Assembly (NCBI GenBank): GCA_002118135.1
Contig: BDIU01000060.1
Location: forward strand, 1 to 59,497
Reading direction: 5' to 3'
Source of the DNA: Trebouxia sp. TZW2008
Taxonomy: Eukaryota > Chlorophyta > Trebouxiophyceae > Trebouxiales > Trebouxiaceae
DNA: 59,497 nt
Under the pieces are notes generated by a model. The model was not told the DNA's origin, did not search any database, and was given only the letters and a program-made list of their open reading frames with translations. Of this stretch, positions 1-58,200 are shown piece by piece (the stretch's first letter is position 1; every line of letters begins with the position of its first letter). The translations under genes were made by a program, and so were the position numbers.

Positions 1-440
1 CAGCATGATCCTGATCGCAGCTCTGCTGTGTCCTGTGTCCCTTGCTGAAATGTTGACAGAAGCGCATTGGCTGATGCAGGCTGCAATGTCCACTCCTTTG
101 GGGAGCAATGCAGTCTTCTCCTACAGTAGATGCTGGCAGCAGCATGATCCTGATCGCAGCTCTGCTGTGTCCTGTGTCCCTTGCTGAAATGTTGACAGAA
201 GCGCATTGGCTGATGCAGGCTGCAATGTCCACTCCTTTGGGAGCAATGCAGTCTTCTCATGCAGTGGACGCTGGCAGCATGATCCTGTTAGCAGTCCTGC
301 TGTGTAGCTTTATGCAATGCTGACAGAAGCACTTTGGCTAATGCAGGCTGCAATTTCCACACCATTGGGAGCGATGCAGGCCACTCCTGCAGTAGATGCT
401 GGCAGCAGCATGATCTTGGTGGCAGTCCTGCTGTGTACTT
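1..440 (+). repeat. Tandem copies of the VPS15 exon 406-556 acceptor edge
   Basis: Four copies of a 131-139 bp unit begin at about 1, 140, 275 and 406. Each carries the start of the exon (tgctggcagcagcatgatc-like). Only the last runs on into the conserved HEAT coding sequence. The first three are read as decayed exon-edge duplicates. Confidence 0.85.
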
Positions 441-3400
441 TGCTGCGTGGCGTGCGCATGCAAGAGAGCAAGATTGCAGCCATCACATTGCTGACTCAAG
501 CAGCCATGGACTGCGATGACGACACCCGCCTGCAGCGCATTGTGCCGTATTTGCTGGTGAGTCATGGCAGCATAACATGCGCCTTGCTCGATGTCAAGGC
601 TTACACATCTGCCGTGATACATGACAAATGATGATGCATGATAGTTGTTCACGCTACACTGACATGTGCTGTACGAAGTTCAAGTGTGCATGACGTTCCG
701 GCATCACAGCGAGGTGTGCATGGCACAGCTACTGCTGAAGTCAGCAATGAGTCATCCAGTGAACTATCAAATCTCTGAGTAAATGCATGAGTGCATCTTG
801 CAGGCCATGATTGCAGAGCCTCTGGCTGCAGTGCGCTGTGTGGCCCTGAGGTCCCTGGGTCAAGTCCTGGAGGCAGTTGACTCTCTCCCTCCCAGTGATG
901 CCAAAATTTTCAATGAGTGAGGCTCTCTCTCTGTATGCATCCTAACAAGGTCAATTGCACTAGCAATCTCGCAAACAATGACGATACCGACGGTGATAAT
1001 GTGGAGTGTGAGGACCATGACAAGGCACCAGCGTGAAAGCCTTCATTTTGTGCAAGACTCTCCTGCTTATCTCATCAGCATGCAGCGTACAAATGTTCAA
1101 CAAGGAAGGCTTGCAGATGGCTCTGACATGAACAGCAAAAAAGCCTTTCGTTCCATGCAACTTTCTGTTGCTTGTTTGCATGCCACCTAGCACCACAGGC
1201 AGTCTGCATGGCAGCACTGACGCGCTGTAAATACTCTGAAGCTGTTTGCGGTCCCTTCAACACCTGACACCAGAAAGATTGGTTGCTTGACAGCGGCCTA
1301 ATCAGCAAGCAACTGCAGTCTGTGAAAGGTAGGTCACGGGGTTCAAACAGCAAACCCCTACTGTGGCTGTCACACTACTCTTACATCCCTGAGTGCAGAC
1401 CCTAATCACCAATCACGCTCAGGACAACAAATCTGATGGCTGGGCCCGGTGGTATAGGTACATAAACTGGCAGCTGCTGCCAATCACTTTCTGCTTCACC
1501 TGCAACAGCTAACATATTCATGGGCAGCCTGTGATTGCGCACTAAGTCAGGAATGACAGGGTTCACAAGGCACACTCTGTGTCTACAGGTACATCTTGCC
1601 GTCATTATCATTGGTACCAGGAGATCACGAGGAGGCTGTGAAGGTGCAGTATGCCTTGGTGCTGGCACAACTGGCAGCTGCTGCCAGTCGCTTCCTGTTG
1701 CACCTTCAACAGCTGGCCAACACACAATTGCAACCTGACCCATCCAGCCCCACACTGGTAGGCTACAAACCTCTGAACAGTACAAAAGAAAAGTAACAGG
1801 AAGAATTGCCCAAGTGGGATTTCCGCTAAACATACCGCAGCTGACCAATACCCAACTGCGACCTGACCTATTCAGCCCCACACTGGTAAGCTTAAGGACC
1901 TGAACAGTTCAAAGGAAAGCAACAAGAGTAGAAGAGGACATTTGCTCAAGAGCGTCTCCTGCTATACCTATCACAGCTGACCAATACCCAACCACAACCT
2001 GACCCATCAAGCCCCCAGTCGGTAAGCACATTCACCAGTGCTTTCAGGCCAGGAACTCTGATGAGTCACACTTGACTCCTTACTCCGGACTGTAAATTGT
2101 ATTAATTGAGTAAGCCTTGGACCTTAGACTCTGAAGCCTAAGCCCTTGATCTGTGTCTTCACACCCTGTTTCACATGTGTAGTGCCTAAAGCTAATGTTA
2201 AAAAAAACATACTCTCTACATCCTGTTGTACCAAGGCAAGCGCCCTGGAACCATCCGTCCTGCAACAAGTTGATAAACCTTTTAATGCGAGATGGTGAGA
2301 AAAGCAAAGCCCAAAATTTGTTATATGATTCGTTAAATGAGTTACAATCCACAACAATTTACAATTGATGACAGTAGTGGTGACTCCTGGGTGATTGGGA
2401 GTCACAAACTTGTTGGCTGGTTAAGACTCCTCCTGACAACTGCAGGTGTGGTATGATCCAAAACTGGCAGTGGAGAGGGTGGCCATCAGGCTGCCTGGCA
2501 GGCCCAAAAGACTACTGTCACTAATGTCACTGTGTCTTGTTGACCTCTGTTGACTTGCTAAGGATGTAAGACCACTTTGTTTAGGTGCATCGCAATGCAG
2601 AGCTGGCGGATTTTGTGCATTAGGGTAAAGAGGGCGGCCATCAAGCCGGCTGGTCAAGGATGTATTGTTGCTGCTCCTCTGCGTGACTGCAGCTGCGGAA
2701 TGATGCAGAACTGCTTGCCCTTGCACCAGTTGATTGGGGGTTCTTTGGGACTCAAAGCCTTGCTGCTTGCCTATGGTTGAGATTGGCATCTTGCAAAACT
2801 GATCCTGCTGTTTCTGACTGCAGGTGCAGTATGATGCGGAACTGGTTGTCAGGGCACCAGCTGGTGGAGGGTTCTTTGTAACTTGGAGCCCTTCTGGTCA
2901 CCTCAGGTTGGAGTTGACAACTAAAATTGCTTCTGCTGTTTCTTACTGCAGGTACGGTATGATGCAGAGCTGGCTGCCTTGCGCAGTGGGGTGGAAAGGG
3001 TGGTCATTGAACTTGTGGCGGGCCCCAAGAGCAGCGCTGCCAGCCGCAAAGCCATCCTGCCCCATGTGGACAACCTGGCTGCCTTCCTTGGTCGCAGGTA
3101 CAGTTTTGTGCATGTTATTGACAATAATGTCTGTCACTATTGCTGCTGCTGCTGCTGCTGCTGCTGTTCCTGCCGGCAATTATCACATTTCTCAATGACC
3201 CAAAGCTTTCTCCTTGATGTCATGTAGATTCAGCAAAAAATGGCAACATTATGTTGCCACTGATGATCAAATTACTGCATAACCCAAAGAGTTTTTAATG
3301 TGTCATGCAGGGAGAGCAATGACTTTTTGCTGCCAGCAATGATTACATTTTTGAATGACCGAGATTGGCAGCTAAGGGCGGCATTCTTCCATCACATCTG

Positions 3401-6400
3401 TGACATGGGTGCGTATGCTGGTAGTGAGGGACTGCAAGCTTTCCTGATGCCATGCTTGGAACAGGTCAGCTGCCCATGCTGTTGCCCCGAACATGGACCT
3501 ACACTCAATCAATCAACATGGGTTTTGTAGTCACACAAGTAATAGTGAGAATGGTGCCTTCCTCTCCTAGCAAGATTGCTTGGAACAGGCTGGCTGTGTG
3601 TTACACTTGCTCTCTCAACTGCTTTTGTCCTTTGGCCGCATGTTTTATGCCACTGCAATTATGCATGTTTTATGCCATGGCAATTATGCATGTTATATGC
3701 CATGGCAATTATGCATGTTTTATGCCATGGCAATTATGCATTTTTTATGCCATGGCAGTTATGCATTTTTTATGCCATGGCAATTATGCATGTTATATGC
3801 CATGGCAATTATGCATGTTTTATGCCATGGCAATTATGCATGTTTTATGCCATGGCAATTATGCATTTTTTATGCCATGGCAATTATGCATGTTTTATGC
3901 CATGGCAATTATGCACAGTGAGGGCCTGCAGGCTTTCTTGACGCCATGCTCGGAACAGGTCAGCTGCCCATGTCAGCAATCACCTTGCATGCAAGATCTG
4001 TAATGACATTGTTTTGTCTGACTCTCAACAGTTGAACATCAGGCGTCCATATTGCCTGCCAAGCCTGCCTGGCAAGATAGGACTTGTGCCACACATACCT
4101 AGCAGTGTATGCTGGAACATGAAATTATCATTATTACTTTTACCTTGCATGCCCTCCAATCTGATCGTGATGGTGTTGATGATGACAGTTAACCATATCA
4201 TCAATGAAGTAGTAACAATGTAGCAATAGTAATATCAATTATTATGATAATACTAACAATAATGATTATTGTTGTAATCATAATCATCATTACTACTTCA
4301 AATAAGAACCCTATGTCACATGAATCAATCAATGGTCAATAGCGCTGCCTGTTGCTGACAGCCAGCAGCATCCACATTTGTATTGTGCATGGGGATCTGC
4401 AACGCACAGCTGATGTTGCAAGGAGTTGCCTCTGTTGAAAAGAACAGAAGAGAAAAGTCTACGCCATCAGGCGTCATGACGGGAGCGTCTGTCTAGAGAG
4501 GCAGCCCAGGATTCCTTTGTTGCACTGCCTTGTAGCACAAAGCACTGCTTTCAGTGCATGCATTCCGCAGCTGTTGCAAGATGGTCAGTGCCACAAGGCC
4601 TCATGCCATTCTTCAGCAGTTGTGATTATGCATGCAACGAAGGCGGTGCATATGCCAAAGCACAGCCCATGAGAGCAGCACAGCCAGACTGTAGCACAAC
4701 TCCAGCAGCGAGTGCAATGTGCACCAGCCAGCCAAAATTGCCATGGACTTATGTTCCAAATGACAAAACTGCAGGTGGAAATAACTTGCATTAGACTGTT
4801 TGCCAATATGCTTGAGTTGCTCTGATGCTGCTATATGTACATATTCAGCTCCTTTGGTTCTTTGGTCCTTTGTTTTGCCTAGCTTGCATGTATGCATCTG
4901 CACAAACCAATGCTGTGGTGTGTGAACTGTTTCTCAGTTGAAATGCAGGCACTGGCTGATGCAGAGCATAGCGTGATTGCAGAAGCTGTGCGCTTCCTCA
5001 GCGCAGTGTGCCGGGAGCGCCAGATACGCAAGCCCTCAGTGCTGGCTGCTGCTCGCAAGGTGCAATTTCTTGTGTGCTTATGTGCAGTTGCAATGTGTGT
5101 GATGACAGACCACATCTGAAATCACTGTGATCTGCTGCTCATGACATGCTGGTGCCTTTTGTCAATGTGCTGTCTATCAGCTAGCAAGGCGCACAGCATT
5201 GTCGTTGCCTGCCATTGATGATCTTGTTGCTAACAGCTGCATTGATGGACAGCATATCGTCAGCTATAGGTGAAATGGCTTCACTCAAGGCCTGCTCTGC
5301 AGGTCTGTCCAGCGTTGCTGCAACACCCAAGCCCAAGCGTGAGAGCAGCAGCAGTGGATTTCATCACAGCCGCTGCCACCTGCATATCTCCCCCCGATGT
5401 TTATGCCCACCTGCTACCCCTGGTGACCCCAGCTGTGACCCACCCCCCAGCATCACTAACCTCAAAAGCGGCCATTGTGGAGCAGCTGCCGCAGCAGCTA
5501 CAGGAGGGGCTGCTGGAGGGGTCTGGGGGCCAGGGGAGGGTGGGTAGCGGAGGGGCCAGGCGTGCTCCAGGGTCTGACGCCTCTATTTCGTCTGCATCTA
5601 GCTTCAATAAGGCTGCTAGAGGCGCAAAATCAGGTGTGAAATGTTGCAAGGAGAGCCAGTCTGAAGTGCAGTAATGCACACCTGACAACCGCAAATGGGC
5701 CTTGTTCGTCCTGCTTTCAGGTTGAGCAATGCTAGCAAGAAGTGCAGGTCATGCTTGAACAGAATATATTCAAGGTTGCAACAGTAGTTTTGTTGGGCGT
5801 ATCATGGTTAAGCTTATCCCTGTCATGTGTGATTCTTGTGTGATCAATCCCTGAGCGTGGTTTTGTCAAGTCAAGCAGAGCACTCTGATTTTGCTTTCTG
5901 TAATCTAGGGCAGGGCAGCCGGACGGGGCCACCCCCTTCCCCCAACCCCTCCAGAACCCCCTCCAGAAGGGCATCGCCAAAGCACCGCAGGGGCCAAGGG
6001 CAGAACCAAGCCACTGAGGAAGGGCTGTTACGCCCTTACTGCGCAGTGTACTCCATGCGCCTTCCAGAGCAGCAAGTACAGGAGCATCAGTCATACCTGG
6101 CAGCTGCTGTGGCAACTGCCAATGCAGCCTCTGACAGATCTGCAAGTACATCAGGTGAGCATCAGTCATACCTGGCAGCTGTTGTGGCAACTGCCAATGC
6201 AGCTTCTGACCGGGCTTCCACAGCAAGTACATCCGGTGGGTAATGCCTCCTGGAGCCGCAAGTACAGGAGCACTTGGCAGCTGCTGTGGCAACTGCCAAT
6301 GCAGCCTCTGACAGATCTGCCACAGCAAGGACATCAAGTGAGCATCAGCTGTACCTAGCAGCTGCTGTGGCAACTGCCAATGCAGCTTCTGACCAGGTCT

Positions 6401-9400
6401 CTACAGCAAGTACACCAGGTGAGTGATGCCTCCCAGAGGACATGTACAGCAGCATCAGTCATACCTGGCAGCTGCTGTTGCAACTGCAGATGCGGCTTCT
6501 GATGGACCCGTCACATCAAGTGCAGCTGTCGAGTAACCATTGTGAACTTCTGCATCAATCATACCTGGCAGATGCTGTGGCACTGCCGACGCAGCTGCTG
6601 TGGCACCGCCAATGCAACTGCTGTGTCAACTGCCAATGCAGCTTCTGACTGGGATGCTGCAGCAAGTACAGCTGGGTAGCAGTACAGCTCTGCGTTGAAG
6701 TCGGTCGCTGGCATGCTGACAATCTGCATTGATTGCATATGCTGCAGCATGTCTGCTGCATCCAATGTGTTGCTGTTGTGCAGAGCTGCCAGGAGTGCTG
6801 ACAAGCAAGCTGGTCGCCAGAGCCAGCAGGCTGAGCAGCAAAGCCAATGCAGATGCAGTCGCTGCCAGCCGCCTGCAGGGGGCGCTGGTGGGTGAGGATG
6901 ATGACCCCCTTTTCCTGGGGGGGCTTCGACCCCCACCAGCTGAAACCATCACAGATGCTATGGGGGCTGCAATCGCAACAGGTGAGCGGCGCTGCTGCTT
7001 TCTCCCATACCTGTGGAATCATCACAAACGCTATGCTGATGCAAGGCTGAGGCATCACAGATGCTATAGGTGCTGCAATCGCAACAGGTGAGAGATGCCT
7101 TGTTCCTTCTGCATTCTATGCAGACAGTGCGCACAAATTGGATGGGTGTACAGAGGTCTAGCAGAGTCTGGTGGATCCTCTGAAAAGCAGGGATGATCTC
7201 AAAACACTTGTCCTCAGCAACCTGCCTGTCCAACTGAACATGGCCCTGTTACATCCCAAAAAGAGCAACACACCCTGGCAACCAGTGTCTTATTCCATCA
7301 GTATTTCACAAGTAGTGCATGACTGTAATGAACAAGTTGTGCACAATTAGCGCATAAGCAGTGCAACAGTGCATCAGTAGCAGTCATTTGATATCCAGGG
7401 CTCAAATGGGTCAGCAAAGGCTGACAAAGGCAGAACAGCCTTTGTCACAGCAGCACTGACAGACAATGCTTCCTGCAAGCAGACCCCTGCAAGCAGACCC
7501 CAGTCTGCTGCAGGATAGTGAACAGGCAACGCCTGTAAGTCTGGAGCAAAAAACTTGCCATTGCTGGACCCAGCTTGTTCTTTGCCAATGCCAACAACAA
7601 CAAATCTACCAAAGTGACTTGATATGAAGGAGATACTGCACCTGTGCAGGCCTGCCATCACAGCATGGCACAGCAGGGAGGGGAGCACCTCCCAGACCCC
7701 CTGGCACCCCAAGGGGGTCTTGATGGGCCACCTGGCTGAGCATAGGCAGGGTATCAATCAGCTTGCAATGGCTGGCAACGGCTTGTCGTTTGGCAGTGCT
7801 AGCAACGATGAAACCATCAAGTCTCCTCATAAGAAGGATCTACTGTACCTGTGCAGGCCTGCCATCGCAGCATGGCACAGCAGGGAGGGGGGGCACCTCC
7901 CAGACCCCCTGGCACCCCAAGGGGGTCTTGATCGCCCACCTGGCTGAGCATAGGCAGGGTATCAATCAGCTTGCAGTCGCTGGCAACGGCTTGTTCTTTG
8001 CCAGTGCCAGCAATGACGAGACTGTCAAGGTGTGGGATTGCCGACGGCTTGAGAAAGACGTGTCATTCAAGAGCAGACTCACCTACACTAGCCAAGGTAA
8101 AGTGCACTTTGGCCAGACTGCTGTGTATGCTCTGTTGTGGTGTTGCAATGATGCAACCGCCAAACTGTGGGACTGCCAGTGACTTGAAAAGGCGTATTAT
8201 TAAACAGCACACCTATACTGGTCAAGGTAAGTTACTCCTTAGCCAGACTTGCCCTCATGCTTCGTGGTGGCTTGCCCAGTGCCAGTAATGATGCGACAGT
8301 CAAGGCGTGGGATTGCCGACGGCTTGAGAAAGACATGTGATCCAAAAGCAGACTCACCTACACTAGCCAAGGTAAGTTACGCCTTAGCCAAATTTGCCCT
8401 CATGCTTTGTTGTTCTTTGCCAGTGCCAGTAATGATGAAACCTACAAGGTGAGGGATTGCAGAAGGCTTGAGAAGGACGTGTCATTTAAGAGCAGACTCA
8501 CCTACACTAGCCAAGGTAGGGTGCTTTGTTGTGATTTTTCCTGTGCCAAAATTCTGTGAGATTGAGGTGTGACATTGCTAGCAATGACGAGACTGTCAGG
8601 GTGTGGGATTGCAGATGCCTGGAAAAGGACGTGTCACTCAAGAGCAGACTCACCTACACTAGCCAAGGTAAGTGATGCCTTAGCCAAATTTGCCCTCATG
8701 CTCTGTTGTTCTTTGCCAGTGCCAGTAATGATGAAATCATCAAGGTGAGGGACTGCAGAAGGCTTGAGAAAGACGTGTCGTTTAAGAGCAGACTCACCTA
8801 CACTAGCCAAGGTAAGATTTGCAATGCATGCGAGCATGCATACCTACAGCCCTTGTGTGGATGGACAATCCTCCAACACCGCATATGACCTCTAAACCCA
8901 AGTCTTGCTACTCCCCAGCACTCCGCGACCGTGGCTCTCAAAACGATGACAACATGCTGTTAATATGACAAACATGCTAGCTGCTGCACTGTGGGACAAG
9001 TGACACAACAGTGTCGACCACCTGACTGGGATGCTGTATTGGAGCAGATCAGACATCTTGCACAGTAAATACAGGTCAGATGTGGCCAATGCACAGGTGT
9101 TGAGGTTGTTCATGGGCGCTGCAGGTGGTGAAGCACTATGCTGCACAGCTTGTGAGGACGGGCAGAGCATAGCCAGCGGCAGCAGCAACGGCAGTCAACA
9201 CATGTGGAGGGTGGAGTATGTCACACGAAGCTGGAGACATCAAAGCACTGTGCTGCAATCAGCATGACTTTGAGGCCATTGCACAATCATTGAACCTGTT
9301 CATGGCACTGCAGGTGGCAAAGCACTGTGCTGCACAGCTTGTGAAGATGGGCAGAGCATAGCCAGCGGCAGCAGCAACGGCAGTGTACATGTGTGGAGGG

Positions 9401-12400
9401 TTGAGTATGTCACACGCGCTGGAGGCTTGCCTGACAAGTACACAGGTTTCCAAGGTATGTGCAAGCCTCAGCTTCCACCACTGAGCCCACCGTCCGCCAG
9501 TCAATTGGGTTTGCCGCTACCAGCGCATTCAACCTGGCTGCTCACAGTGCATTTGAGCCTGCATTTTGGAAAAAAAACTCAACTTAGCTGCACATGCTTT
9601 GGTTGACAGTAGCCAAGCATTGGTAGCAGGTCAATACCAGCACCACCTGGCTAGGTGACACTCTTTTGCATAACTCACAGCGCATCAGCACGATCTGCAG
9701 GGGTGTGCTGCAGCCTTGAAGCAGGCATCTGGCGATGGCTTCCAACCACAGTCAAGCACGCTGGCAACCCCAGCTGCAAATTACAGTGCATCGACATGAT
9801 ATGCATGGTTGTGCCGCGCTTGTATACAGGCATCTGGCAATGAGTGGCAGCCACAGTGAAGCATGGGTCACCCTCATGTACTGCAGGCTTGAAGCAGGCA
9901 TCCGGCAATGAGTTGCAGCTGCAGTCATGCACGCTGGCAGTTCCTAGCTGTACAAACATCAACGCAAGCCACAAAGGTGAAAAATATGGCTTTGATCAGA
10001 CATCCAACAAAGGGGTGAAATGGTGTACAAGCACGCTGCCTAACCCAAAGTATTCTTCCTGCACAAAATATTTGAGGCATCAACATGAGTCAAAGGCAGT
10101 CATCATTTTTGCTGCAGGCCTGAAGCAGGCATCCAGCGATAGCAGCATGGTCACAGCATTGCAAATCTGCAATTGTGCACTGCCAATGGCCACATTCTGA
10201 AGGGCCTGCTGTGGCTGGGCCTCAGCTGGAAATGTTCCTACGTGAAGTTCCTGATGCATTGAAACCACTTCCTGAGCAAAATGCATGGTGAATAACATCA
10301 TTTGCTCTGGTGTGCTGCAGGCCTGTAGCAGGGAAACAGTGTTGGCAGTGCAATCACAGCATTACAGACCTGGAAATCTGCCTTGCTTATGGCCACAGCC
10401 AGAGGGATTCCGGTGAGATAGGACCTCACAAGTGGCAGCTGCAGTGGCAAACCACAGCCGAACAGCCTGCTTGCACAGACACCGCATCATGTTGACATAG
10501 ATTGTCATCATGTGCTGCAGGCTTGAAACAGGCAAACAGTGATGGCGGTGCAGTCACCGCATTGCAGACTTGGAAATCTGCCTTGCTTATGGCCAAAGCC
10601 AGAGGAGGGTTGGTGGGGTTGGACCTCAGGACTGGCAGCTGCAGTGGCAAACCACAGCCAAACAGCCTGCTTGTACAAATACCGCATCATGTTGACATAG
10701 ATTGTCATCATGTGCTGCAGGCTTGAAGCAGGCAAATAGTGACGGTGGTGCAGTCACCGCATTGCAGACTTGGAAATCTGCCTTGCTTATGGCCACAGCC
10801 AAAGGGATTCCAATGAGACAGGACCTCACATATGGCAGCTGCAGTGGCAAAACACAGCCAAACAGCCTGCTTGTACAGACACCGCATCATGTTGACATAG
10901 ATTGTCATCATATGCTGCAGGCTTGAAGCAGGCAAACAGTGATGGCGGTGCAGTCTCCGCATTGCAGACCTGGAAATGTGCCTTGCTTATGGCCACAGCA
11001 CGGGGAGGCTTGGTGGGGTGGGACCTCAGAACCGACAAGCACACATTCACTCTGACTGACTCTCCTCGCCAGGCATGTTACTAATGATGTCGTCTTCAAG
11101 TTTCAGTGTCATGTCTAGCATCTTGATGCATGAATGAATGAAATGTCATTTCCATCGCGATTTTCCAAGCCAAACTTCACAGATGCTGAAGGAGGATGCA
11201 CAATGCACATTTTGCGCTCAGACCTGCCCTGTTTTGCAGTCGTGAAAGCATATTAACCCCAAAATAAGGTCAGCAAGTTTCCGATGCTTGTATTTGTGCC
11301 TGTGGACAAACGCTGTATCTGGTGAAAATAGCAGGACAGCAGAAACTGAAAAGCAAGTGGCTGATGCTTTTCTGATGTATGTGTTCCAGGGTGTGTTGCG
11401 AAGGCTTGCATGTGACGGTTCAGATTCCCCCTGGCTGCTGATGGGCACCTCCAGAGGCCACCTCACTTTATGGGACATGCGCTTTCAGATTCCCCTTACC
11501 AAGTGGCGACATCCTTTAGGTACTCTTCCTTTGAAACACTGACGTGACACTGAAAGACACTCACACTCACACTCGCACTCGCACTCGCACTGACTGACTG
11601 ACTGACTGGCTGACTGACAGACAGACAGACTGACTGACCGACTGACTGATAATCATTGACTGAGTGACTGACACTCTGCTTACTCATACTCTGCCTATTC
11701 ACCAGTATTGATGTGAACAAGCAAAGCAGATCTGACAAGTCAGGCATTATGCAATAATCCTGCTTTCTTCATTTCCTGGCTTCTGTGCTGATGCAAAGTT
11801 CAGCAGACAAGCTTTACAGTAAGTTCTCTTTGTAAGGACACTCGCTGTAAGGGCACTCTTGATGTAAAGACAGCGCAGTCAGAGTCCAACCACTGCATTC
11901 TGAATGAGATGGTGTTCCTGAGTCAGGACACTCCAATGTGAGGACAATGTTCTTGGGAAATAAAGCAGTCGTTTCAAAGAGCATTGACTGTAAATCCTTA
12001 GCCAGTCAACAAGGCTGTGGTAAATTTTACATCATATTTGATGGCCAAGCTGTCATCGCTACGGCATTTGGAGCATCCAATGTAAAGTTTGCTCAAGTCA
12101 ATCAAACCAAAAGCTGTTTGAAAGAATTGGCTAACAGCTGATGGACATTGTGGCAATGCAGGGCAGCCTGTAGAAGCCCTTGCCCCTGCTGTTGCTCCAG
12201 TGGGGCACTTGGGGTTGAGGGGGGGTGGTAGGGGTTCATCCCCACTTGTGTACATTGCAGCTGGGGGTCACGAAGTTGGCTTGTGGGACATTGAAGAGGG
12301 CAAATGCCATCAGGTGATCTCTTCTGGCCTGCCTGGTTTCTTCATGAATTGGCTTGGCAGACTGTCTCTGTGAACAGCAAAATCCTCTTGCCAAAACTAA

Positions 12401-21818: not shown

Positions 21819-21882
21819 TGTACAGTGTGAGGAATTAGCACCTCGCCATCTAGCTAGCAATGCTTTTATCCCATACGCGCTC
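21819..21882 (+). repeat. Left terminal inverted repeat of the retroelement
   Basis: 64 bases, starting TGTACAGTGTGAGG. They match the reverse complement of 25337-25402 apart from two one-base gaps. Confidence 0.9.
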
Positions 21883-22366
21883 CGAAACCAATATAACAGA
21901 GTGAGATTTACAATAGTGGCTTGGTGCTGGAAGGCACCCAAGACCAAGCGTGCGTAGCGGAATCATTAATGATAAGCCTCAACGCATTGGCCCTCGATAG
22001 CCGCAACCCGACAGGAATCAGAAGGAAGCTATGATCAGACACGTGATGCCATAACCACTGCTAGGGTAAAGCATAGAGCACACTGCTACATTCCCCCCCA
22101 CTTATATTTAACTTACCCAGGTTGAACAGCAACAAAGCGAGAGCATAAGGGAACTGCATTGTAGCACAGCACAAGCCACCCTGCCGGCATTGGGATGCCA
22201 CTAGCGTTGCATAGCGTAGCTTAAAGAGGTTGCATAGCCTAAAGCATGGGCTGCAAAGCAACAGTTCACAGTTCTGAGGAAAGCTTAGCAAAAGTACTCA
22301 TTGTACAGATCAGCAGCCCAGCCGATATAGGCAAACCTCAAACAAGGCAAAAGCAATAGCAAGCCA

Positions 22367-25215: not shown

Positions 25216-25336
25216 GTTGCCTTTACCGGCGTTCCCGTTGTTGTTGCCAGCATCGAACATCTCGATCTCGCCGGACATGATGCGCTCAAAAAGCTAGTAA
25301 CTGTCTGGAACCGAAAGCTCCGAAACCATTGTTACA
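25204..25336 (-). pseudogene. Short gag-like or captured 5' ORF fragment
   Basis: On the minus strand, ATG at 25278 opens a frame beginning MSGEIEMFDAGNNNGNAGKG. It runs into the Pol fragment out of frame near 25215. Position, between the inverted end and pol, suggests the N-terminus of Gag left after an internal deletion. No homology is recognised. Confidence 0.35.
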
Positions 25337-25402
25337 GAGCGCGTATGGGATAAAAGGCATTGCTAGCTAGATGGCGAGGTGCTAATTCCTCACACTGCTA
25401 CA
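25337..25402 (-). repeat. Right terminal inverted repeat of the retroelement
   Basis: 66 bases, inverted relative to 21819-21882, ending ...gctaca just before the second ccaac. Confidence 0.9.
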
Positions 25403-30870: not shown

Positions 30871-31225
30871 GCCTGCATGATCATATCTTGACGCCTGAGA
30901 CCTGCATGCCCGTATGTCAGATTGAGTAGTCTTGTCTATCAAGCAGCTTCTTATTTTTCGCATTGTCAGTGGCTTCTGTTTGCCGCCAGCCATACAGCCC
31001 AAATACCTTGAACCCTGAGTCCTGCATCATTTCATTTTGTTTGAGGGACGTTTGTGTCTTCAGCAGTCACTTGCCTTCAGCTTTGTCAGCGGCTTCCAGA
31101 ATCTGAACTGCCAGCTAGGCAGCTGATATACCTTGACACTTAGCTGTTTCATTGGTTTCCTTTGCCACAAGCAGTGTTTCGTCTTCAGCCTTGTCAGTAG
31201 CTTTTGTTTTGCAGTGCAAGGCAAA
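30795..31225 (+). repeat. Tandem repeats spanning the U-box stop codon and 3' flank
   Basis: Four degenerate copies of tttgtcagtggcttctgttt and following sequence begin near 30815, 30962, 31080 and 31190 (period 110-147 bp). The first supplies the U-box gene's last codons and stop. Confidence 0.8.
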
Positions 31226-43306: not shown

Positions 43307-46300
43307 ATGAGTCGGCTCAGGACTTGTGCAACGCTTCAGCGAGCTGCGGTTGCTTCAGCGTTGCTGATCTTCGTTGCAGCGCCGATCGCGCTGTTGCACC
43401 GAGATTATGCCAAGCCTCACGCAAGGGCCGTCTCTCGTTCAGCCTCTGCATCTGGCTACGATGCGGCTCTACCGGTCGAGCAGCTTTTGTCGCTCAGGTA
43501 TGGGTGCTTGCACATCTGCACAATCTGCCCTCATCCAGCACCTGTGACACGATGACAAGGGCATAGCTCTTGGCCCATGTGCAGCTGTTGCCATGCCTGT
43601 CTGTGCCATCTTGTAAGTCCCACCTGCCCACTCAGCAATGTTTGCATTCAGTACATGACAGCCATTGTTTGCAGTTCATAATCACGACGCCCACTTCTGC
43701 TGATTATTCAGCTTTGCAGCTGCACAAGTCTGCTTGCATCAAACCCTACGACAACCTTCTGATCATTATGATACATTTCAGGCAGCCTAGCACCTTTCCT
43801 GTCTTGCCTGTACTGTTCAAAGCCATAGCTTGAGCCCAACACCTTTTTTGTGATGACTGTATCTCTAGGGCAATTACTTCAGCCCAGCATCTTTTTTGCA
43901 TTGCCTGTACCCTGCAGACAAGACTTGAGCCCAGCACCTTATTTGCGTTGCCTGTACACGACAGACAAGCACTCTGCAGACAAAAATTTGAGCACAGCAC
44001 CTTTTTTGCATAGCCTGTATTCTCCTGACAAGAACTCTGCAGACAAAAGCTTGAGCCCAGCACCTTTTTTGCGTCGCCTGTACCCTTCAGACAAGACTCT
44101 GAGCCCCAGTACCTTTCCTGTGTGGCTTGAACTATCCAATAAAACAGGCATGCCCTGCTTCACAGAAGCACCTTAGCCCAGCACCTTTTTTGCATAGCCT
44201 GTATTTCACACACAAACAATTGAGTCTAGCACCTTTTCTGCATTGCCTGTACTTTCCATGCCATCAGCAAGCAAGCCCAGCACCTTTGACTGCTGATTCT
44301 TTGTGTCAGATGCCTATGTGGCTAGATCATGCAATCAGTGTCACTGTGCTTCTTTTGCATGCTGAACATTTCACCCATCATCATGCATCACCTCAGCTGT
44401 TGTATGCTCATAGCTAAGCGCATGTGATGTGTCACATGCCAGTGGCAATGTCCATGAGTAGCTCACTTTCTGCCACATGGATGCAGAAATGCTTTTGTGA
44501 ATTTTGAATCTGCTCCTTTGTAGGCAGGAGTTGTATCGCCAGACCTACACTCAGCTCAAGCCAGTACACCCTCAAATACAGTCCGGCAACACGCTACAGG
44601 TTCTGCCCAGTTTTGCCAAGCCCCAAACCCTAGCCGCCGCAGACGGCACCATGGTGTTTCTGGAACCAGAACCCTATCTGAACGGGGCGCAAGACATTGT
44701 CAACCACACTGCAGACACGTTCATTGACAGCAAAACTCATGCAGCGTGGATGAAGGGCACTGCAAGCTTGAGAGGCAGACCTGTGGACATGCCAGAAGCC
44801 AGATATGCGCCTGTGACACGCAAGGATCTGGTCATCGCTCTGTCATCTTCACTTGATAGGTGAGAGTGCATGTTCTGCAGCCTGGCTCATGTACATTAAG
44901 GTTGCATTCAATCAAGCAATCAATCAATCAATGTTACTGTCCTGGGGACCCAACAGGATGGTCAACAGACAATATTGACAATTCATTCTTGGCAGACAGC
45001 AACACCTGATGTTCTGAAGACCATGGCTATGCACAAGCACATGCATTTTAGCAGAAGGCGCAATAGCAAAGTAAGCAAGATGATACATCCTTGGACTGAG
45101 TCCAAAAAAACGCAGCAAATGCAAAATGCATTGCGATCAAGTCTCAAGCACAGCGATCTACTGAATCTCGTGTTGATGGCCAATCTGAGCTCTACTGCAA
45201 CAGTGGTAGTCTTTAGAACTTTCTCTTTGCAAGGAAAGCCATGCACGCTGCATCATTGACAAGCCCTGATCACAATCAGTTGTTGTGCTCAGCATCTGTT
45301 GCTCAGCACAAAGGCACGTCAGCACAGCAATGTGTACAGAAGCAAGCTACTGGCATCAATGGCTCGAGCACATTGAAAAGAGAGAGAACAGTTACAATAA
45401 TCTCTCGATATACTGACTGCATTTGGTACCCAGAAAAGTGTCCTTACATCAAATTGTCCTTACTCAGAAGCACCACTGTAATGAATGCAGTGCTTGGTTC
45501 CCACTTGCATTGTTTTCATATCAAGAGTGTCCTTATATCGAGTGTCCTTGTATTGAGAGAATACTGTAGTCCTTCCTTTCTGCAGGAAATCCTTGTTTCA
45601 GGCTAGCAGGGCATGGCGGCAGGGGGTACGCACACACATCTCACTGGACATCCCCAATCCGTCGGGTCTCTTCTTCCAAGTAAGCTACTGTTGGTCCTGC
45701 CTAGCTCAGTGCTGATGCCTTGTCTTGCCATGCGTTCAAAACGAGACAAGAAGGAGTTAGAAGCAACCTTCAGCAGAGGTCCTGTTCAAGAACCAGACAG
45801 AAAAAGTCTGTTGGTGTCATCGATACAGGAAAAGTTGCAGCAGGTCGTCAAACAAGCTGGCCTTATGAGACAAGGCTTGAGCCATACACACCTGGCGCAT
45901 GTGCTGGAGAGTGCAATGTCATCATCACAACAACTTTCGTGCTGATGACTGCATGAAAGAAGTTTATGTCAGTTTTCTATGGCTAAACCGTCTTTTTTTG
46001 TTTTGTTTTGGATTTTGTCTGTTGAACTCCCTGTCGGGTCCTGAGGTCAGAAAATGTGACTGACTGACTGACTGACTGTCTGTCTGACTGACTGACTGAC
46101 TGACTGACTGATTGATAATAATTTACCAGATTGGATGCGTGTCTGCTGATCTCAAACCAAGGGTTGCCTTGACGCCGCAGGAAGGACGGAAGGCGTTCAA
46201 TGAGACATATGGCTACTGCAGAGATGTAGAAAGCAACTCAACAGACAGCTCAGTGGAGTCTCTCAGGTCTGGCCTGGACGTCATGAAATGCTGTGGTGCA

Positions 46301-49300
46301 TTGCCGCAAGCGACATGCATGATACGGTGCCTCAACATGCAGAAGTGGCAGCAGAGTTTGTTTGGTGCAACAAGATCCAGTGCTAGAAAAGCCGTTCTGA
46401 ATGTCTAACAAGCTCCGCTGCTGTCTGCCCAGAAATGCTGTCCCTGCTGTTCAACCCAATGCCAGCTTAAAAGAGTAAATGCTGCATACTTTGACTGCAA
46501 CAGTTGAGTTTTGTTGTGGACTGAAGGTCTGATGCATGCAGGGCTGCCATGACACCTTTCCTGGCCAACCAATCCATTGGAAATCACAGCTACAAGCCGT
46601 GGTTGCATGACAGAAGCAGTAATACTCACAAAGTGACTGAGATCCGCTTGTTGCTTGACAGAAAGAGATGATGCATGCAGGGCTGTCACGACACTTTTCC
46701 TAGCCCACCAATCTGTTGGAGTTGACAGTTACAAATGACTGAAGAGTTGATGCTTGACTGCAAGGGACCCCAAACGCATGGCAGAAGCAGTGTTACCTTC
46801 AAAGTGACTGAGAACTTTTTGCTTGACCCAAAGACCTCATGCATGCAGGGCTGCCATGACATCTCTCCTAGCCCACCAATCTGTTGGAGTTGACAGTTAC
46901 AATTGACTGAAGAGTTGACGCTTGACTGCAAGGGATCCCGAGTGCATGGCAGAAGCAGTGTTACCTACAAAGTGACTGAGAATGTTTTGCTTGACAGAAA
47001 GGGATCATGCATGCAGGGCTGCCATGGCACCTTTCCTTGCCAACCAATCTGTTGGAGTTGACAGCTACAAGTGGATGCTAATTGGAGAAGATGACACAGT
47101 CTTCTTTGTTGACAATGCCATGAAGCTGCTGCATCACCTGGATCACAACCTCCCATACTTCCTTACCGACAACATCCAGTATCCTCAACAGCACATTGAT
47201 GGTGATACTTTTTTCTTTTAAATGTCGAAGCATTTCCTTGGCAGGCAATAATCGGATGCTGCACTTGCTTCTGCAACTGCTACATTTTCAAAACAGACTT
47301 CATGCAAAACCAACAGCACTGATAGCTCAGCATTATACGACCAATGACTACTTTCAGCTCTTTTGGATGCCAGTAGTCACATTCAAGTCCCACAGAACAG
47401 CACTGCTCTGGATGGTTTTGTGCAGTGTGTCAAGCATCAGTTTGGCATGTGTCACTGAGCTGCTGTCAGCTTGAGCAAGCAAGTCACGCAGCTAAAAAAC
47501 TCCTAACGAGCTGTTCAGCATTGCAAATGTATGTTCCTGGTATGCAGGCACACAGTATGTGGGGATGAATCCCAACCCCAGGGCCCCCCGCTGCTTGCCC
47601 TGTAACTACGCGGACCCCCTTCAAGGCCACTATCACAACCCCCAGACCTTCAACGCCACCCCAGTAAGTAATACACTCTGGGATGATGTTGCCCTGCAAA
47701 TTGCTTGCTGGCTTGTGAAGTTTGAAGAACTATGGAGTGTATAAATGATGAGCATGTCGGGTACAGGCATGTCTCTCGCCACTACATATTGCTTGACAAT
47801 GGCGGTTCTCTTGTAAGCAACGTTGAGCATGCTGCGTGCAGCAATGTCAGCACTGATTGGTTGTTGCTGGCTGTCATGTGTTTCCCAATCATCTTGTGAA
47901 GCAGTGCGTGAGTTGCACAAAGGTATACTCGAGTGTATGTCTGTATAAATGGCGGCCAGACAAGAAAGAAAAAATGATGTTGCACATGTTGGTTGCAGGC
48001 ATGTCCATGCACACAAATGGCTGTGTGTCAGTCAGACAATATGTGGCTGACGGACCACCTGTGTCGCTTCAAATTCAACCCACCTGGCCGCGGCTACGCC
48101 TTTCATCTGGGTGAGTCCAGTCTGGTTCCTTAATTGAAACCAAAAATAAGATCTGTACCAGTAATGTCACACTCGTCCATGCTGTACCCGCATCGCCTCA
48201 GACTCTCATCAGCAACGTCTGTTCCTGTGACTGTTCAGCAAAAGCGTATATGCAGTGGGCTTGTCTCGAAATCGATGTTGGTCACAACAGTGCATCATTA
48301 AACAACAGCCTTGTTTTTACATTGTTGAAGAAATTGTCAATCCAAAACTTGTATGAGGCAAGATGTGTCTGATTTGAAAAGTGCTATCGCCATGACATGC
48401 AGGTGCAGGGGCCATAATCAGTTCAGGGCTGATGCGCATGCTGGACTTTGACACAGTAGAGCAGGACCTCAGCAACAGGACCTACTTTGCATCAGGAGGT
48501 AGATATGTCATGCACGCATGACTTATCCATGTGATGACTCATCAGAGGTTTTGCAGCATTGTGACTTCACCACATGACCTGATGTTGTAATGCCAGAAGT
48601 TTCTGTATTCAGGCCAGTACAGTTGCCTTTTGTATATTTGTATATACATTATATACAATATGGTATATATACTTATATATATTTGTAGAAGCAGCCTCCA
48701 AGTGCCATTGCAGGAAGCAAGCATCAAGCCAATCTGACAGACCTCACTTTGTTGCTGAGTTGCATCCTGTGGCCTTGCCTCTGACCTTTTTTTTTTTTTT
48801 TCACATGCTATACACTTTGCAACATCTTGTGTGATTAGCAGACTGTTTCCTGGCTGACTTTTTGACTACTTCCTGCTGTTTGCATTGCAGAGTCAATGCT
48901 GGCTGAGCTGCTGTGGAACAGCATGCAAAGTCAAAGTGATACACCGTTCTCTTTATGTCATTTTGTGCTTCCAGCAGACTATCCCTGACTTACTGAGGTC
49001 ATCCTGTTATTTGCGTCGCAGAGTCAATGCTGGCTGAGCTGCTGTGGCGCAAGCTGTCACTGCTGCCCACAGATCCAGGTGAACCTTCAGCTTTTGCTGT
49101 TTACAGAGATCTGTGTGACCAATTATTTCTCTTGCATTGCTGGCTGAGCTGCTGTGGCGTAAGCTGTCGCTGCTACCCACAGATCCAGGTGAACCTTCAG
49201 CCTTTGCCTTTTCCAAATATGCGCGTGACAAATTCTGTATCTGAAATTGCGAAACCAACGAAAATCTGTGTGGCCAACTGTGCATGTTGACTTGTGGAAC

Positions 49301-50226: not shown

Positions 50227-51077
50227 TGCAAGCAAATTTGGGTGGGGACAAACATGAAGAGCGCAAGCATTCCAAGTGCAGATGCTAGCGCTTGATGGCT
50301 AGTCACAACATGAGAGGAGTGCAACTGTCTGGACATTCTGGACAGCATGTAGGGAAACAATCATCAAGAGCGTGATGACGCACAATTGTGAAGAGCATTC
50401 TGAATGCATACTTAATCCCTAGAGATGCCTAGCCACATTGAGGGAGGAGTGGCGATGTCTTGAAGTTCTTGACAGCATGCTGGGAAACAATCATGAAGAG
50501 CATGCTGGTGCACAAGTCTCAAGAGCATGCTGATGTGAGGAAGTTCCAATGACGAAGTTCAGATCTGAGGCGTTTCACTTTCTGAAGTCGAGGGACATTG
50601 ATCTTACTTGTACGCTTTCCTGGAGTCAGACGAAGTGCGGGGTGCAGGCTGAATAGTGTACATTACATGAAGCAGATGCACAGTTGGGCTGAAAACTTCA
50701 AGGCAATCCTCAGATACACCATAGCCTGTTTGAGGCAGACCCGATATCTTGTGAAGTCGAACATCTGGTTGATGTTTTAAAGAGGCTAGCATTGCTTGAT
50801 GTCAAGGTTTGCGCAGGCTAGTGTCATGCGCATTATCTGTATCATGCTGAAATGGTTGCCACTGATGTTCACACGCTTTTCAAGGATCTGTCAATTGATT
50901 GCAACGTGTGCACATCCTGACACGTCATTTCATTAGAGCACAGTCGTCTTGGTGCAATCTTTACATTTTGTCAGTCGAGCATGAAACGCCATTCATGTAC
51001 TTGTAATGTACAAGCGTCCTGACTACCTAAATCTTTAAGTATGCTGCAAGACATGGTGTGCACACCGTGTCGTGTTG
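50227..51077. other. Intergenic, 3' flank of the glycosyltransferase with a two-copy repeat
   Basis: No gene recognised. A ~120-bp unit containing gggaaacaatcat-aagagc is present twice (about 50350-50400 and 50470-50530). Confidence 0.55.
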
Positions 51078-52177: not shown

Positions 52178-52296
52178 TAAGATAGATGCAGAGAACTTCA
52201 GCATGCATGCGCAGTTTCGGCACGCTCCGCGCTGGCTCGAATGCAGTTGCAGGCAGTTGGTTGTGACTGCGGGACTTCGGTCAACTTCAAAACCGC

Positions 52297-55200: not shown

Positions 55201-58200
55201 CATACTTCTGCAAACTGTTTAGGGATACGGCTCACCTCAACAGTCAGCAGCTCGTAAGGCCTGTATGGGTAGTGGCTTGTGACACTGACAAAGGTGTCAT
55301 TACACACTGACAAGCTGTGCAGTCCATCAGTCATCTTGAGACCCTACGCAGGTGACACACACTTTTTGAGGTCTTTCTGTCAGCTTGCAGTGGGACATCA
55401 CACCTTCGCGGGTCAGCTTGCTGCGCCTGTTGCCATGGTGCAAGTGTGTCGCTTCATATGAAGCCATCTTGTTTCATTGGCATTCTTGACTGCGCTTTTT
55501 CTCGGTAGCCACAATGTTTTGGAGCGGCAGTAAGATGCAGTACACAAGTGCTTCTGCTGGGCATCATGCTGGACATGCTTGCTTTCAGGCAGACGCCCGA
55601 CTGTAGCGCATCAAAAACATCGAAGCTTTCTTACATTGTTGAGCTCACGCCATCTGCCCCCAATGTTGACAAAGGTATTATTGTTGATTATGCACATACA
55701 AACAGCAAAGCCAAGATGTTGAGGGCCACAGGCAAGGCAAAATGCTCAAGCATGCAGGTAAGAAGTCAATATCAGCTTAGCACATAGGCTGTTTCTGGAA
55801 CCACAGAGTGTAACTGCTCTGATGCCCAACAGCACAGACACTGTTTTTCGTCCCTCTCACGGAAAGTCTGCAAACAATGTTACAAACAGGCAGACCTTGA
55901 GGCAGGCTACCAGGCAACATCTGCTTGAGCGCTTACATGCTTGCAGAGCCTTTGCAAAAGTTGCCATGCAAGTTGCCATGCAGAATGTTTGCAAAGGCTG
56001 CCAAAATACAAAAAGACAGGAGAGCTCACCAGGCGATACGTGCTTGAACTCTTGTAGGCTTGCAGAGCCTCCCAGAATCCTGTGGTGTTGCCTGTGTCCA
56101 AGTACATGTCATGCAGCATCTGGAGACCCGCCTCATTCATGGGTGGGTAGTCTCCATACAGCCCACTACCCAGCTCGAAGGCAGGTATGAACAGCAGCAA
56201 CCCCAGCACACCTGCACAGGCATCACATGCTGATTTGCAGAGCCCCGTAAGAAGCCTGTGGTGTCACCAGTGTCCTGGAACATGTCATGCAGCATCTGGA
56301 GGCCTGCCTCATTCATGGGTGGGTAGTCTCCATACAGCCCACTACCCAGCTCAAAGGCAGGGATGAACAACAGCAACCACAGCACACCTGCAACATGAAC
56401 ATGGCAGGCCATTCACACATGGTGCCAGGTCCATGTCATGCAGCATCTGAAAACCCGCCTCGTTCATGGGTGGGAAATCCCATACAGCCCACTTTCCCAG
56501 CTCAAAGGCAGAAATGAACAGCAGCAAACTTAGCACACCTGCAAGATAAGTTGCACAACATGGTCAAGGCAATCAACAACTGACTGCACAAGAACAGCTT
56601 CAAGGCTCAAGAGAGCGGGTTGCATCTCACCCACTCACGCACAAGCATCTACCAAGATCTGTGACAGGCACAAGAAGCAGCAGCCTCAACAAAGGCATGA
56701 CAGGTGAAATCATTCAGAATCTGTGCTGGACAAATACCTGACACCAGCATGTGCAATGTGTTTTACAGCAGGCAGAGACTCACTGTCTTCTCACATGTAT
56801 CTGCAATGCCGGATGTCATGCTGTGGTGCGCTGCAAACCATGTAATGCTGTTGCAGCAGACGTGTGCCTGGTCTGTACAAGGGCAGCAGTCAAGTTGTGA
56901 TGTGGTGCACAGTCGGCACTAGGTAACCAGCACCATAAATTGCGTGCTTACCTATAATGACCCGTCGAGTGGTCAGGTGTGACAGCTTCTGCCCTACTCT
57001 AGTTCTGGCTAGAGATGCTCGCTGCCCAAAGTGAGCAGGCTTACTCATTGTCAGCCCTCCCTGTATTTCCATTGATCTGACCTGTGCACACAACAGCATG
57101 TCTTTTGACAGTCTTTTTTGACATGCTTCATACGCAAGCCTTGCTTTTGTGATATTTATCATAACTGTGACCCATACAGGATGCTGCATGCCCTGTAATG
57201 GAACCCACACCCTGCAGCACTGGATGACAAAAGTCTTTCCATAGGTGTGCTAACAATACACGTCAGCATAGCGTCAGTGTGCTGGCATGCTTTGCTGTTT
57301 GATTGCACTGGAGTAGATGCACAGAAAGATGGGGCCCCAAGCGCATCTGTGCAAAACTGTTTTGACACCCATTTGCAAGGCTTCACGAGCTTTTGCTTGT
57401 GGAGGTTTCAGACACCAGCTAGGCTGTGATTCATGTTTACAGCATCAACTGCAGCATCAAACGCCATACCTGTTTGGTTAGCTCGTACTGATTGTACAGG
57501 TAGACTAACCGCATGAGCCGCAGGATTCTGCAGACCCTCATGATTTGTCTGGCCTTGTTGGCTGACGTGTTGCTGGTGCCTCTGGCCAGAAATGATACCT
57601 CATCATCTTCAACGGTGTGACTGCTGAGGCTGATGCTGCTCAGGCCGTTCACAATGGCTGGAATGTCTAGTAGCATGGAAAGCGTCGCAACAGTGTCTAT
57701 CAACCTGCATTGCAGTCAAGCTCGGTCAGTATGTGCCAGTAGGGGGAAAAGAGGCACAAACACGTGCTACTCAGACCATTGACTATGGCTGGGATGTCTA
57801 TTAGCATGGAGAGCGTTGCAACAGTGTCAGTGAACCTGCGTTGCATTCAACCTTTGTCGGTGCGTGACATTTGGTCAAACAAGCAATTGTCAAGCCTTAG
57901 CTGTTGCTGGGAGGGCTGCTCAACCATCCACACGTGCTGATGTGCACGTGTATGGAAGCCTTTGGACATTGCTACATACAAACACCAAGCAGACCATCAT
58001 GCTGTTTGCCACTACATACTCAATAGTGCATCACAACATGTAGCTTAATCATGCTAGACCATGAAGCAACCAAGCATGCAGCATTCAATCATGCAACAGT
58101 CAGTCATGCAGTAATCAATCACGCAGCTAGTGCACTCAATCATGCAGCACTCAATTATACAGTAGCACTCAACGATACATATATGGGGCTAGGGCTTACC

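What the first reader, a model, noticed from the sequence alone, without database searches (positions are those of the whole stretch)
1..57840. Genome-wide habit: exon edges tandemly duplicated into the neighbouring intron
At about 18 places in six unrelated genes on both strands (VPS15, SOD, U-box, TFIIF-alpha, glycosyltransferase, cyclase), an exon edge with its splice site is repeated 2-7 times in the adjacent intron. Copies decay with distance. When the acceptor edge is repeated the working exon is the last copy; when the donor edge is repeated it is the first. Generic tandem duplication does not predict that splice borders should so often be included. It fits either a mutational process that targets exon-intron junctions or intron growth and intron birth by tandem duplication of AG/GT-bearing segments. 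If general in this genome, it is a distinct route to long introns and new isoforms.
Basis: partly seen in the sequence, partly recalled or inferred. Interest (0 to 1): 0.88.

Follow-up and report, generated by a model that had tools for sequence, protein, structure and literature searches.

The report
Half-exon echoes beside their exons
In this genome, probably that of a green lichen alga, short tandem duplications keep copying one half of an exon together with its splice site into the neighbouring intron, and by predicted gene models the copied piece ends at the middle of the exon far more often than chance allows, which points to a likely weak spot for DNA copying or breakage at exon centres.

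Summary
In 280.6 kb of this genome I found 106 local direct-repeat loci: 105 with period 60-240 bp, one at 260-300, none at 300-1500. In predicted gene models, 64 of 106 are crossed by an exon, so that one exon half with its splice site is repeated in the adjacent intron. An end-to-end null (uniform insertion, mutation, re-annotation, re-detection) gives 25%.

"Last copy works / first copy works" follows from geometry. Breakpoints do not sit at splice sites: the exon-side end sits at the exon MIDPOINT. Of 53 array ends inside 70-300 bp exons, 26 lie within 10 bp of the midpoint (uniform expectation 7.0; simulated null 16%). Ends are 7-10 times denser there than in introns or intergenic DNA, which purging of harmful duplications cannot produce. 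The effect appears in three subsets and three gene-model versions, and in Pfam-matched Not1, polymerase-B and alternative-oxidase genes.

Best mechanism, partly inferred: short duplications with one end fixed at the exon centre, likely a nucleosome centre where Okazaki fragments end. Intron birth (1 of 106 arrays reaches both flanking exons) and mobile introners (3 units tested, all local) are not supported. No RNA, sister species or chromatin data were available.

The parts
1..442 (+). array, period 139, 3.2 copies; repeats acceptor half of predicted exon 347-556; array end 9 bp from exon midpoint
   Evidence: alignment
1710..2027 (+). array, period 128; donor part of predicted exon 1589-1757 repeated downstream
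2684..2976 (+). array, period 131; acceptor edge of predicted exon 2952-3097 repeated upstream
3638..3915 (.). 25-bp minisatellite, no exon; counted among the 22 loci
6059..6600 (+). array, shifts 70 and 186; donor part of predicted exon 5879-6154 repeated downstream
6947..7092 (+). two copies (95% identical, shift 106); donor edge of predicted exon 6784-6981
7554..8816 (+). composite array in the WD40-type ('VPS15') gene, periods 208 and about 135-144; exon-plus-intron units, no exon crosses an array end
9081..9424 (+). two copies (85%, shift 190) holding short predicted exons 9125-9151 and 9314-9340 whole
9677..9939 (+). array; acceptor half of predicted exon 9887-9976 repeated upstream; end 8 bp from midpoint
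10110..11032 (+). intronic array, period 200, 4.6 copies; a unit of it was matched nowhere else in the genome
26607..26923 (-). array, period 122; acceptor edge of Fe/Mn SOD exon 26213-26640 repeated in upstream intron; end 34 bp into a 428-bp exon (not central)
30807..31030 (+). two copies (87%, shift 149); donor edge of U-box/ARM gene exon 30362-30816; end 10 bp inside the exon (not central)
33386..33759 (+). array, period 146; acceptor half of TFIIF-alpha gene exon 33687-33832 repeated upstream; end at the exon midpoint
34883..35159 (+). two copies (84%, shift 164); acceptor part of predicted exon 35060-35186
36993..37879 (+). array, period 198, 4.5 copies; acceptor half of predicted exon 37810-37931; end 9 bp from midpoint; a unit of it was matched nowhere else in the genome
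38799..39229 (+). array without predicted exon, period 116
43783..44258 (+). array without predicted exon in the final model, period 97 (an earlier model placed an exon at 43918-44119)
46529..47073 (+). array, period 139, 3.9 copies; acceptor part of predicted exon 47017-47201
48854..49250 (+). array, period 110; contains predicted exons 48891-48935 and 49022-49078 whole
50294..50533 (.). two copies, shift 130, no predicted exon
56060..56547 (-). array, period 175; acceptor part of predicted exon 56030-56211
57634..57869 (-). two copies (80%, shift 131) in the cyclase gene; acceptor half of predicted exon 57567-57704; end 2 bp from midpoint; unit matched nowhere else in the genome (the search also missed its known second copy)

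Best explanation
Short tandem duplications repeat one half of an exon plus its splice site in the adjacent intron, their exon-side end lies at the midpoint of the predicted exon three to four times more often than expected, and the end is likely set there because the exon centre is a nucleosome centre where Okazaki fragments end and are re-copied. Shown: the loci, their size limit (105 of 106 at 60-240 bp), the direct orientation, the half-exon content, the midpoint peak in predicted exons, the forced order of working copy and echo. Inferred: that exons here carry one centred nucleosome; that an unremoved flap or re-extension from that point makes the duplication; that the extra copies then drift without function and intronic parts decay faster.
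For: Size: 105 of 106 loci have period 60-240 bp, peak 120-140, one at 260-300, none at 300-1500; TRF periods cluster at 10-20 and 100-220. Midpoint: 26 of 53 ends within 10 bp, 33 within 20 bp; uniform expectation for 10 bp 7.0, the observed count not reached in 200,000 random draws; end-to-end null with whole-exon and all-exon events purged 100 of 618 = 16%, at most 8 per replicate. It appears in the window (5/12, expected 1.6), L007-L023 (17/32, 4.3) and L024-L035 (4/9, 1.2), and with two other gene models (20/48 and 12/37, expected 6.3 and 4.8). Density: 5.95 ends/kb at exon midpoints against 0.57-0.80 in introns and 0.61 intergenic, so loss of harmful events alone cannot explain it. Exons in Pfam-matched genes: Not1 (3 bp from midpoint), DNA polymerase B family, delta by my recognition (5 and 2.5 bp), alternative oxidase (5.5 bp, upstream and downstream echoes). 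Geometry: 32 vs 2 and 22 vs 2. Drift: differences by codon position 220/216/339 over the first 217.6 kb, as for one constrained and one free copy. Precedent: in FEN1-deficient yeast, 148/160/148 bp rearrangements with 30 bp spacers have breakpoints at nucleosome midpoints and Okazaki termini, and tandem duplications also rise (PMC13334657: passages and section 2.5).
Against: No nucleosome map or replication data exist here; a 10-bp AA/TT/TA/AT periodicity around exon midpoints was not seen, and GC only peaks mildly there (0.576 against about 0.48 in flanks). The midpoint rule holds for exons of about 80 to 264 bp, which is sharper than a nucleosome centre need be. Three ends in other 70-300 bp exons of the same Not1 gene (L027) lie 22, 27 and 65 bp off centre, and the long SOD and U-box exons are not central. 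No breakpoint motif. XPG/FEN1-type nuclease domains are present in the genome, so no loss of FEN1 is shown. In several cases the intron part of the unit is nearly unrecognisable while the half-exon is 86-94% identical, which plain drift does not predict. Gene models are ab initio, without RNA. The midpoint statistic was found by looking, not fixed beforehand.
Confidence: 0.36

Rival explanations
1. A break of another kind at the exon centre (staggered nicks, topoisomerase, excised transposon) is re-extended from one end and closed by end joining, as in patch-mediated or CST-Pol alpha fill-in repair; nucleosomes and Okazaki fragments play no part.
For: Small tandem duplications from fill-in plus end joining are known (PMC8355091, abstract and introduction read). 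The alternative-oxidase exon and one L018 exon have upstream and downstream echoes that overlap by 11 and 10 bp near the centre; a third such exon (L021 4015-4104) has no overlap.
Against: It gives no reason for the exon centre or for the 60-240 bp limit; the paper speaks of short (<100 bp) insertions, while most units here are longer. No motif at breakpoints.
Confidence: 0.27
2. Duplications arise uniformly; whole-exon and coding-disrupting ones are purged, and arrays that contain exon sequence stay recognisable longer because one copy is constrained.
For: Whole-exon duplications are rare (5 exons upstream, 5 downstream, most of them in my judgement doubtful exons or the echoes themselves), as purging predicts. 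Intron parts decay faster than half-exon parts. An early, smaller test found no junction excess in the most similar arrays (13 of 28 against 12.6, though 12 of 28 against 7.4 for exon-crossing).
Against: Array ends at exon midpoints are 7-10 times denser than in introns or intergenic DNA. Simulations of this model give 25-29% exon crossing and no midpoint peak against 60% and 26 of 53 observed. With more sequence and the final models the most similar arrays are enriched too (19 of 36 against 29%).
Confidence: 0.17
3. The echoes are kept by selection as decoy or alternative half-exons that steer splicing.
For: Half-exon and splice signal stay similar while the adjoining intron does not; some echoes keep splice-like ends at both sides (Not1 gene) or are read as exons by the model (L022 7060-7140).
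Against: The codon-position pattern fits a freely drifting second copy; an L018 echo carries a stop; by eye no GTRAG donor follows the acceptor-type echoes printed; nothing in it predicts an exact midpoint.
Confidence: 0.1
4. Artefact of ab initio gene models.
For: Exons are self-trained predictions without RNA; models call extra exons inside arrays (e.g. L022 7060-7140).
Against: Null sequences run through the same predictor do not show it; three model versions agree in direction; exons in Pfam-matched genes show it.
Confidence: 0.07
5. Intron growth or birth by tandem duplication of AG/GT-bearing segments (first reader; Rogers-type).
For: Splice junctions are inside many arrays (72 of 106); a duplication across an intron-exon boundary made a new intron in a potato gene (PMC4974935, abstract and introduction read).
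Against: One of 106 arrays reaches into both flanking exons, and its splice sites are not homologous in the two copies. Lengthening of introns by the arrays is trivially true; birth is what lacks support.
Confidence: 0.03

Closest known systems
Small inverted triplications in FEN1-deficient cells, breakpoints at nucleosome midpoints and Okazaki termini (PMC13334657; passages and section 2.5 seen)
   Same: Unit about 150 bp, spacers of tens of bp, ends at a chromatin-defined centre; tandem duplications also rise in the mutant.
   Different: There the middle copy is inverted; here copies are direct, found on many sampled contigs, and the centre is that of an exon. No nucleosome data here.
Small tandem duplications by CST-Pol alpha fill-in and end joining (PMC8355091; abstract and introduction seen); patch-mediated break repair in plants (recalled, not read: Vaughn and Bennetzen 2014; Schiml 2016)
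   Same: Short, direct, local duplications.
   Different: Described as short (<100 bp); no preference for exon centres in what I read.
Intron gain by tandem duplication across an intron-exon boundary (potato RdRp, PMC4974935, abstract and introduction seen; Rogers 1989 as cited there)
   Same: Duplicated segment crosses one intron-exon boundary.
   Different: No sign of a new intron flanked by both array ends in 105 of 106 arrays; breakpoints are central in the exon.
Tandem exon duplication (PMC9013439, abstract and outline seen)
   Same: Exonic sequence duplicated next to its exon.
   Different: Half exons with a single splice site, seldom whole exons.
Tandem repeats enriched near intron ends in green algae (Chlamydomonas, Volvox; PMC3887541, passages seen)
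   Same: Repeats near intron-exon junctions in green algae.
   Different: That survey names dinucleotide (GT/AC) motifs as the abundant intron repeats; half-exon units and midpoints are not mentioned in the passages I saw.

Membership tests
Generic short tandem duplication (repair or replication slippage) | direct head-to-tail local copies | tested here: met
   106 loci; 17 inverted HSPs, local and distant, in 217.6 kb; 3 of 3 tested units matched only at their own locus
Generic short tandem duplication (repair or replication slippage) | breakpoints spread evenly over exon and intron | tested here: not met
   densities; nulls
Okazaki/nucleosome-centred duplication (FEN1 type) | unit near nucleosome/Okazaki size | tested here: met
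   105 of 106 periods 60-240, peak 120-140; median 153 for 37 loci with an end within 30 bp of an exon midpoint, 133 for 69 others
Okazaki/nucleosome-centred duplication (FEN1 type) | breakpoints at nucleosome centres | not testable with these tools
   no chromatin data; 10-bp sequence periodicity not seen
Okazaki/nucleosome-centred duplication (FEN1 type) | FEN1 or flap processing impaired | tested here: inconclusive
   XPG_N and XPG_I domain matches present; which gene is FEN1, and its activity, unknown
Intron gain by tandem duplication | array spans the intron and reaches into both flanking exons | tested here: not met
   1 of 106 arrays
Tandem exon duplication / mutually exclusive exons | whole exon with both splice sites copied | tested here: not met
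   54 half-copy cases (32 upstream, 22 downstream; an exon with both counts twice) against 10 'whole' cases
Introner | same sequence dispersed in many introns | tested here: not met
   3 of 3 tested units matched only at their own locus; 3 of 106 loci tested, and one search also missed the known 80%-identical second copy, so sensitivity is limited
Decoy/alternative half-exon | use in transcripts | not testable with these tools
   no RNA data

The most novel reading that the evidence does not exclude
Exon midpoints are mutational hot spots: in this alga each exon behaves as one replication/chromatin unit whose centre is where DNA synthesis stops and restarts, so that exons continually shed half-exon echoes with splice signals into their introns. 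The echoes are a fossil record of where Okazaki fragments or breaks end, and a steady source of long introns and half-made splice sites.
Probability: 0.35. Interest if true: 0.87.

Novelty: new variant of a known kind. Interest (0 to 1): 0.74.

Why it matters
If exon midpoints are true breakpoints, gene structure and a mutational process are tied together in a way that can be read from DNA alone: half-exon echoes would report nucleosome or Okazaki-end positions over evolutionary time, explain part of intron growth, and show why cryptic splice sites lie next to real ones. It also makes a clean prediction for any genome with short exons.

Tried and rejected
Splice-site targeting: rejected, because introns next to splice sites are not enriched for array ends. 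The first placement test, with whole arrays shifted at random, gave a weak excess (48 of 68 against 37.8); unit-level and end-to-end nulls replaced it. An early age split hinted that only less similar arrays contain extra junctions (id>=84: 13 of 28 against 12.6); with more sequence and the final models the most similar arrays are enriched too, so pure ascertainment was dropped. Simulations of uniform duplication with constrained exons did not reach the observed values. A non-tandem 'insertion into the exon centre' reading was considered for short copies; spacer-to-flank similarity (13 comparisons, z 5.0, 2.5, 2.3, 2.5, -1.0, 3.2, 12.5, 0.7, -0.4, 3.5, -0.4, 0.5, 2.3) favours a tandem duplication whose intron part decayed, though not in every case. 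Breakpoint motif: none (33 sites; TGCA 7 against 2 in random exon sites). WW periodicity: none. Pfam rows over the whole genome as a model-free check: among 138 listed domain matches (UQ_con 36, proteasome 24, Ras 43, AAA 25, XPG_I 6, XPG_N 4; for AAA only 19 of 180 candidates were scored) I saw repeated half-domain matches by eye in two genes (XPG_I on C57, AAA on C328). Short decayed echoes fall below that search's threshold, so this neither confirms nor refutes the rate. Mito_carr was not used for this, as its domain repeats naturally. Dropped before counts: L012 (low-GC piece), L001-L006 (short), L032 (overlaps L030). The first self-trained model with free splice matrices drifted in its donors and was replaced; it is reported only as a sensitivity check. 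Limits of the end-to-end null: its background kept 11 residual loci in 255 kb after removal of extra copies (excluded from placement), and its identities spread somewhat wider than the real ones. Literature: ten searches; none of the listed titles and abstract starts describes duplication ends at exon midpoints, in a library that lacks most subscription journals. Introner paper PMC9860276: passages seen, not used further.
Full report
What was examined. The window is a whole contig (C59) of a 68.5-Mb, 527-contig genome. GC about 49-50%, with GTRAG donors and TGCAG-like acceptors in the better-supported genes, suggest a green alga; size and GC match Trebouxia sp. A48 (69.09 Mb; nuclear contigs kept at 48-50% GC; PMC12712428, passages), but the species is inferred. 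Besides the window I used 221 kb of the same genome; the final set is 280,554 bp.

Method. Local direct repeats were found by self-BLAST (word 7, E<=1e-4 for a fixed search space, shift >=60; up to 2000 bp, 1500 bp). Genes were predicted with a two-strand hidden Markov model that I wrote and trained on this sequence, with splice matrices held near a GTRAG/TGCAG prior. It gives SOD, TFIIF-alpha, U-box, Not1, DNA polymerase B and alternative oxidase proteins that match Pfam; a cyclase domain was seen in an open frame.

The loci. 106 loci were found; 105 have period 60-240 bp with a peak at 120-140, one lies at 260-300, none at 300-1500. In the first 217.6 kb, resampled sequence gave none and 17 inverted pairs appeared, several of them tens of kb apart or in one locus. 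Three of three tested units were matched only at their own locus; even the known second copy (80%) was missed, so this test is of limited sensitivity.

Association with exons. 72 of 106 contain a predicted splice junction and 64 of 106 are crossed by an exon (40 acceptor, 25 donor; one array has both). In the end-to-end null, 28 replicates of uniform insertion with neutral decay and constrained exons, re-annotated and re-detected, the figures are 40.7+-3.5% and 25.1+-2.7%. With strict exons (at least 30 bp and log-odds 5 outside the array) it is 29 of 106 (27%) against 12.5+-2.5%. Both identity classes show it (>=84%: 19 of 36 against 29%; below: 45 of 70 against 22%).

Where the ends are. Among the 65 exon crossings, the fraction of the exon inside the array is 3,5,6,6,15,21,4,2,3,0 by tenths, that is 36 of 65 in the two central tenths; the null has 23-24% there. 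For exons of 70-300 bp, 53 ends fall inside and 26 lie within 10 bp of the midpoint, 33 within 20 bp; the uniform expectation for 10 bp is 7.0. The window gives 5 of 12, L007-L023 17 of 32, L024-L035 4 of 9. Other gene models give 20 of 48 and 12 of 37. A null that also purges whole-exon duplications gives 100 of 618. Ends per kb: 5.95 within 10 bp of midpoints, 1.40 at 10-30 bp, 0.76 in the rest of such exons, 0.45 in other exons, 0.57-0.80 in introns, 0.61 intergenic. Loss of harmful events cannot lift a class above neutral DNA, and slower decay of exon-bearing arrays should add at most about 1.5-fold by my rate argument (inference).

Exons in known genes. The Not1 exon L023:9768-9953 (end 3 bp from midpoint), polymerase-B exons L022:7265-7528 and L023:2873-2953 (5 and 2.5 bp) and the alternative-oxidase exon L026:9582-9690 (5.5 bp for both its upstream and its downstream echo) follow the rule; the proteins match Pfam Not1 (3e-137), DNA_pol_B (2.4e-74; exonuclease domain 1.3e-36) and AOX (3.4e-20). 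'Delta' for the polymerase is my recognition. Three other 70-300 bp exons of the same Not1 gene (L027, adjoining L023 on contig C322) have ends 22, 27 and 65 bp off centre, a fourth exon there is 324 bp and was outside the size range, and the long SOD and U-box exons are not central.

Geometry and fate. Upstream partners carry the acceptor half in 32 exons and the donor half in 2; downstream partners the donor half in 22 and the acceptor half in 2; internal pieces in 3 and whole exons in 10 cases. This is what a tandem duplication with one end inside an exon must give, so the working copy being last or first needs no special mechanism. Differences between copies by codon position (220, 216, 339 over 1669, 1659, 1668 sites, best HSP of each array in the first 217.6 kb, pairs with two predicted exons included) fit one constrained and one free copy. 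In about a dozen cases the copy runs only from the exon middle to within about 15 bp of the splice site; spacer-to-flank comparison shows residual tandem homology in most but not all of 13 comparisons. Why the intron part decays so fast there is unexplained.

Mechanism. The unit size, direct copies and a fixed central end resemble replication errors at Okazaki ends. In FEN1-deficient yeast, rearrangements of 148/160/148 bp with 30-bp spacers break at nucleosome midpoints that coincide with Okazaki termini (PMC13334657; passages and section 2.5). If exons here hold one centred nucleosome, an exon midpoint is such a point. This last step is inferred; sequence periodicity gave no support, XPG-family domains are present, and the sharpness in exons up to 264 bp is more than the model needs. 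A break of another kind at the exon centre, repaired by fill-in and joining (PMC8355091), stays a serious rival.

Verdict. The main limits are ab initio gene models, 280.6 kb of sequence, a statistic found by inspection, and no RNA, chromatin or sister genome.

Noticed in passing
window 21819-25402: Ty3/gypsy-type element (pol-like open frame 22958-25222; Tf2-1-like SH3 and a borderline chromodomain at 22367-22957) downstream of the SOD gene, flanked by a 72-bp inverted repeat at 94%; a 443-bp piece has 94-95% copies on contigs C1 and C322.
   Followed up: partly
window 3423-3972: 25-bp minisatellite of 11 copies (3638-3915) enclosed by a 56-bp direct repeat at 91%.
   Followed up: no
genome contig C57:178778-179254: An XPG-type nuclease gene shows its own first half-domain (profile positions 1-47) three times in 480 bp, two copies with stop codons.
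   Followed up: no
genome contig C328:132033-132472: AAA-domain match (profile 45-129) preceded about 180 bp upstream by a match to positions 50-93, a possible half-exon echo seen without my gene models.
   Followed up: no
L011 7787-7940, L023 2873-2953, L025 842-936, L026 9582-9690: Echoes 88-94% identical to the half-exon while the adjoining intron sequence is barely alignable; not explained by simple neutral decay.
   Followed up: partly
window 11589-11672 and 46057-46115: Two distant tetranucleotide arrays of the same family (ACTG/TGAC), 34 kb apart.
   Followed up: no
L022 7060-7140 and L026 6999-7070: Gene models read some echoes as extra exons of the polymerase and alternative-oxidase genes; candidates for isoforms if RNA shows use.
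   Followed up: no
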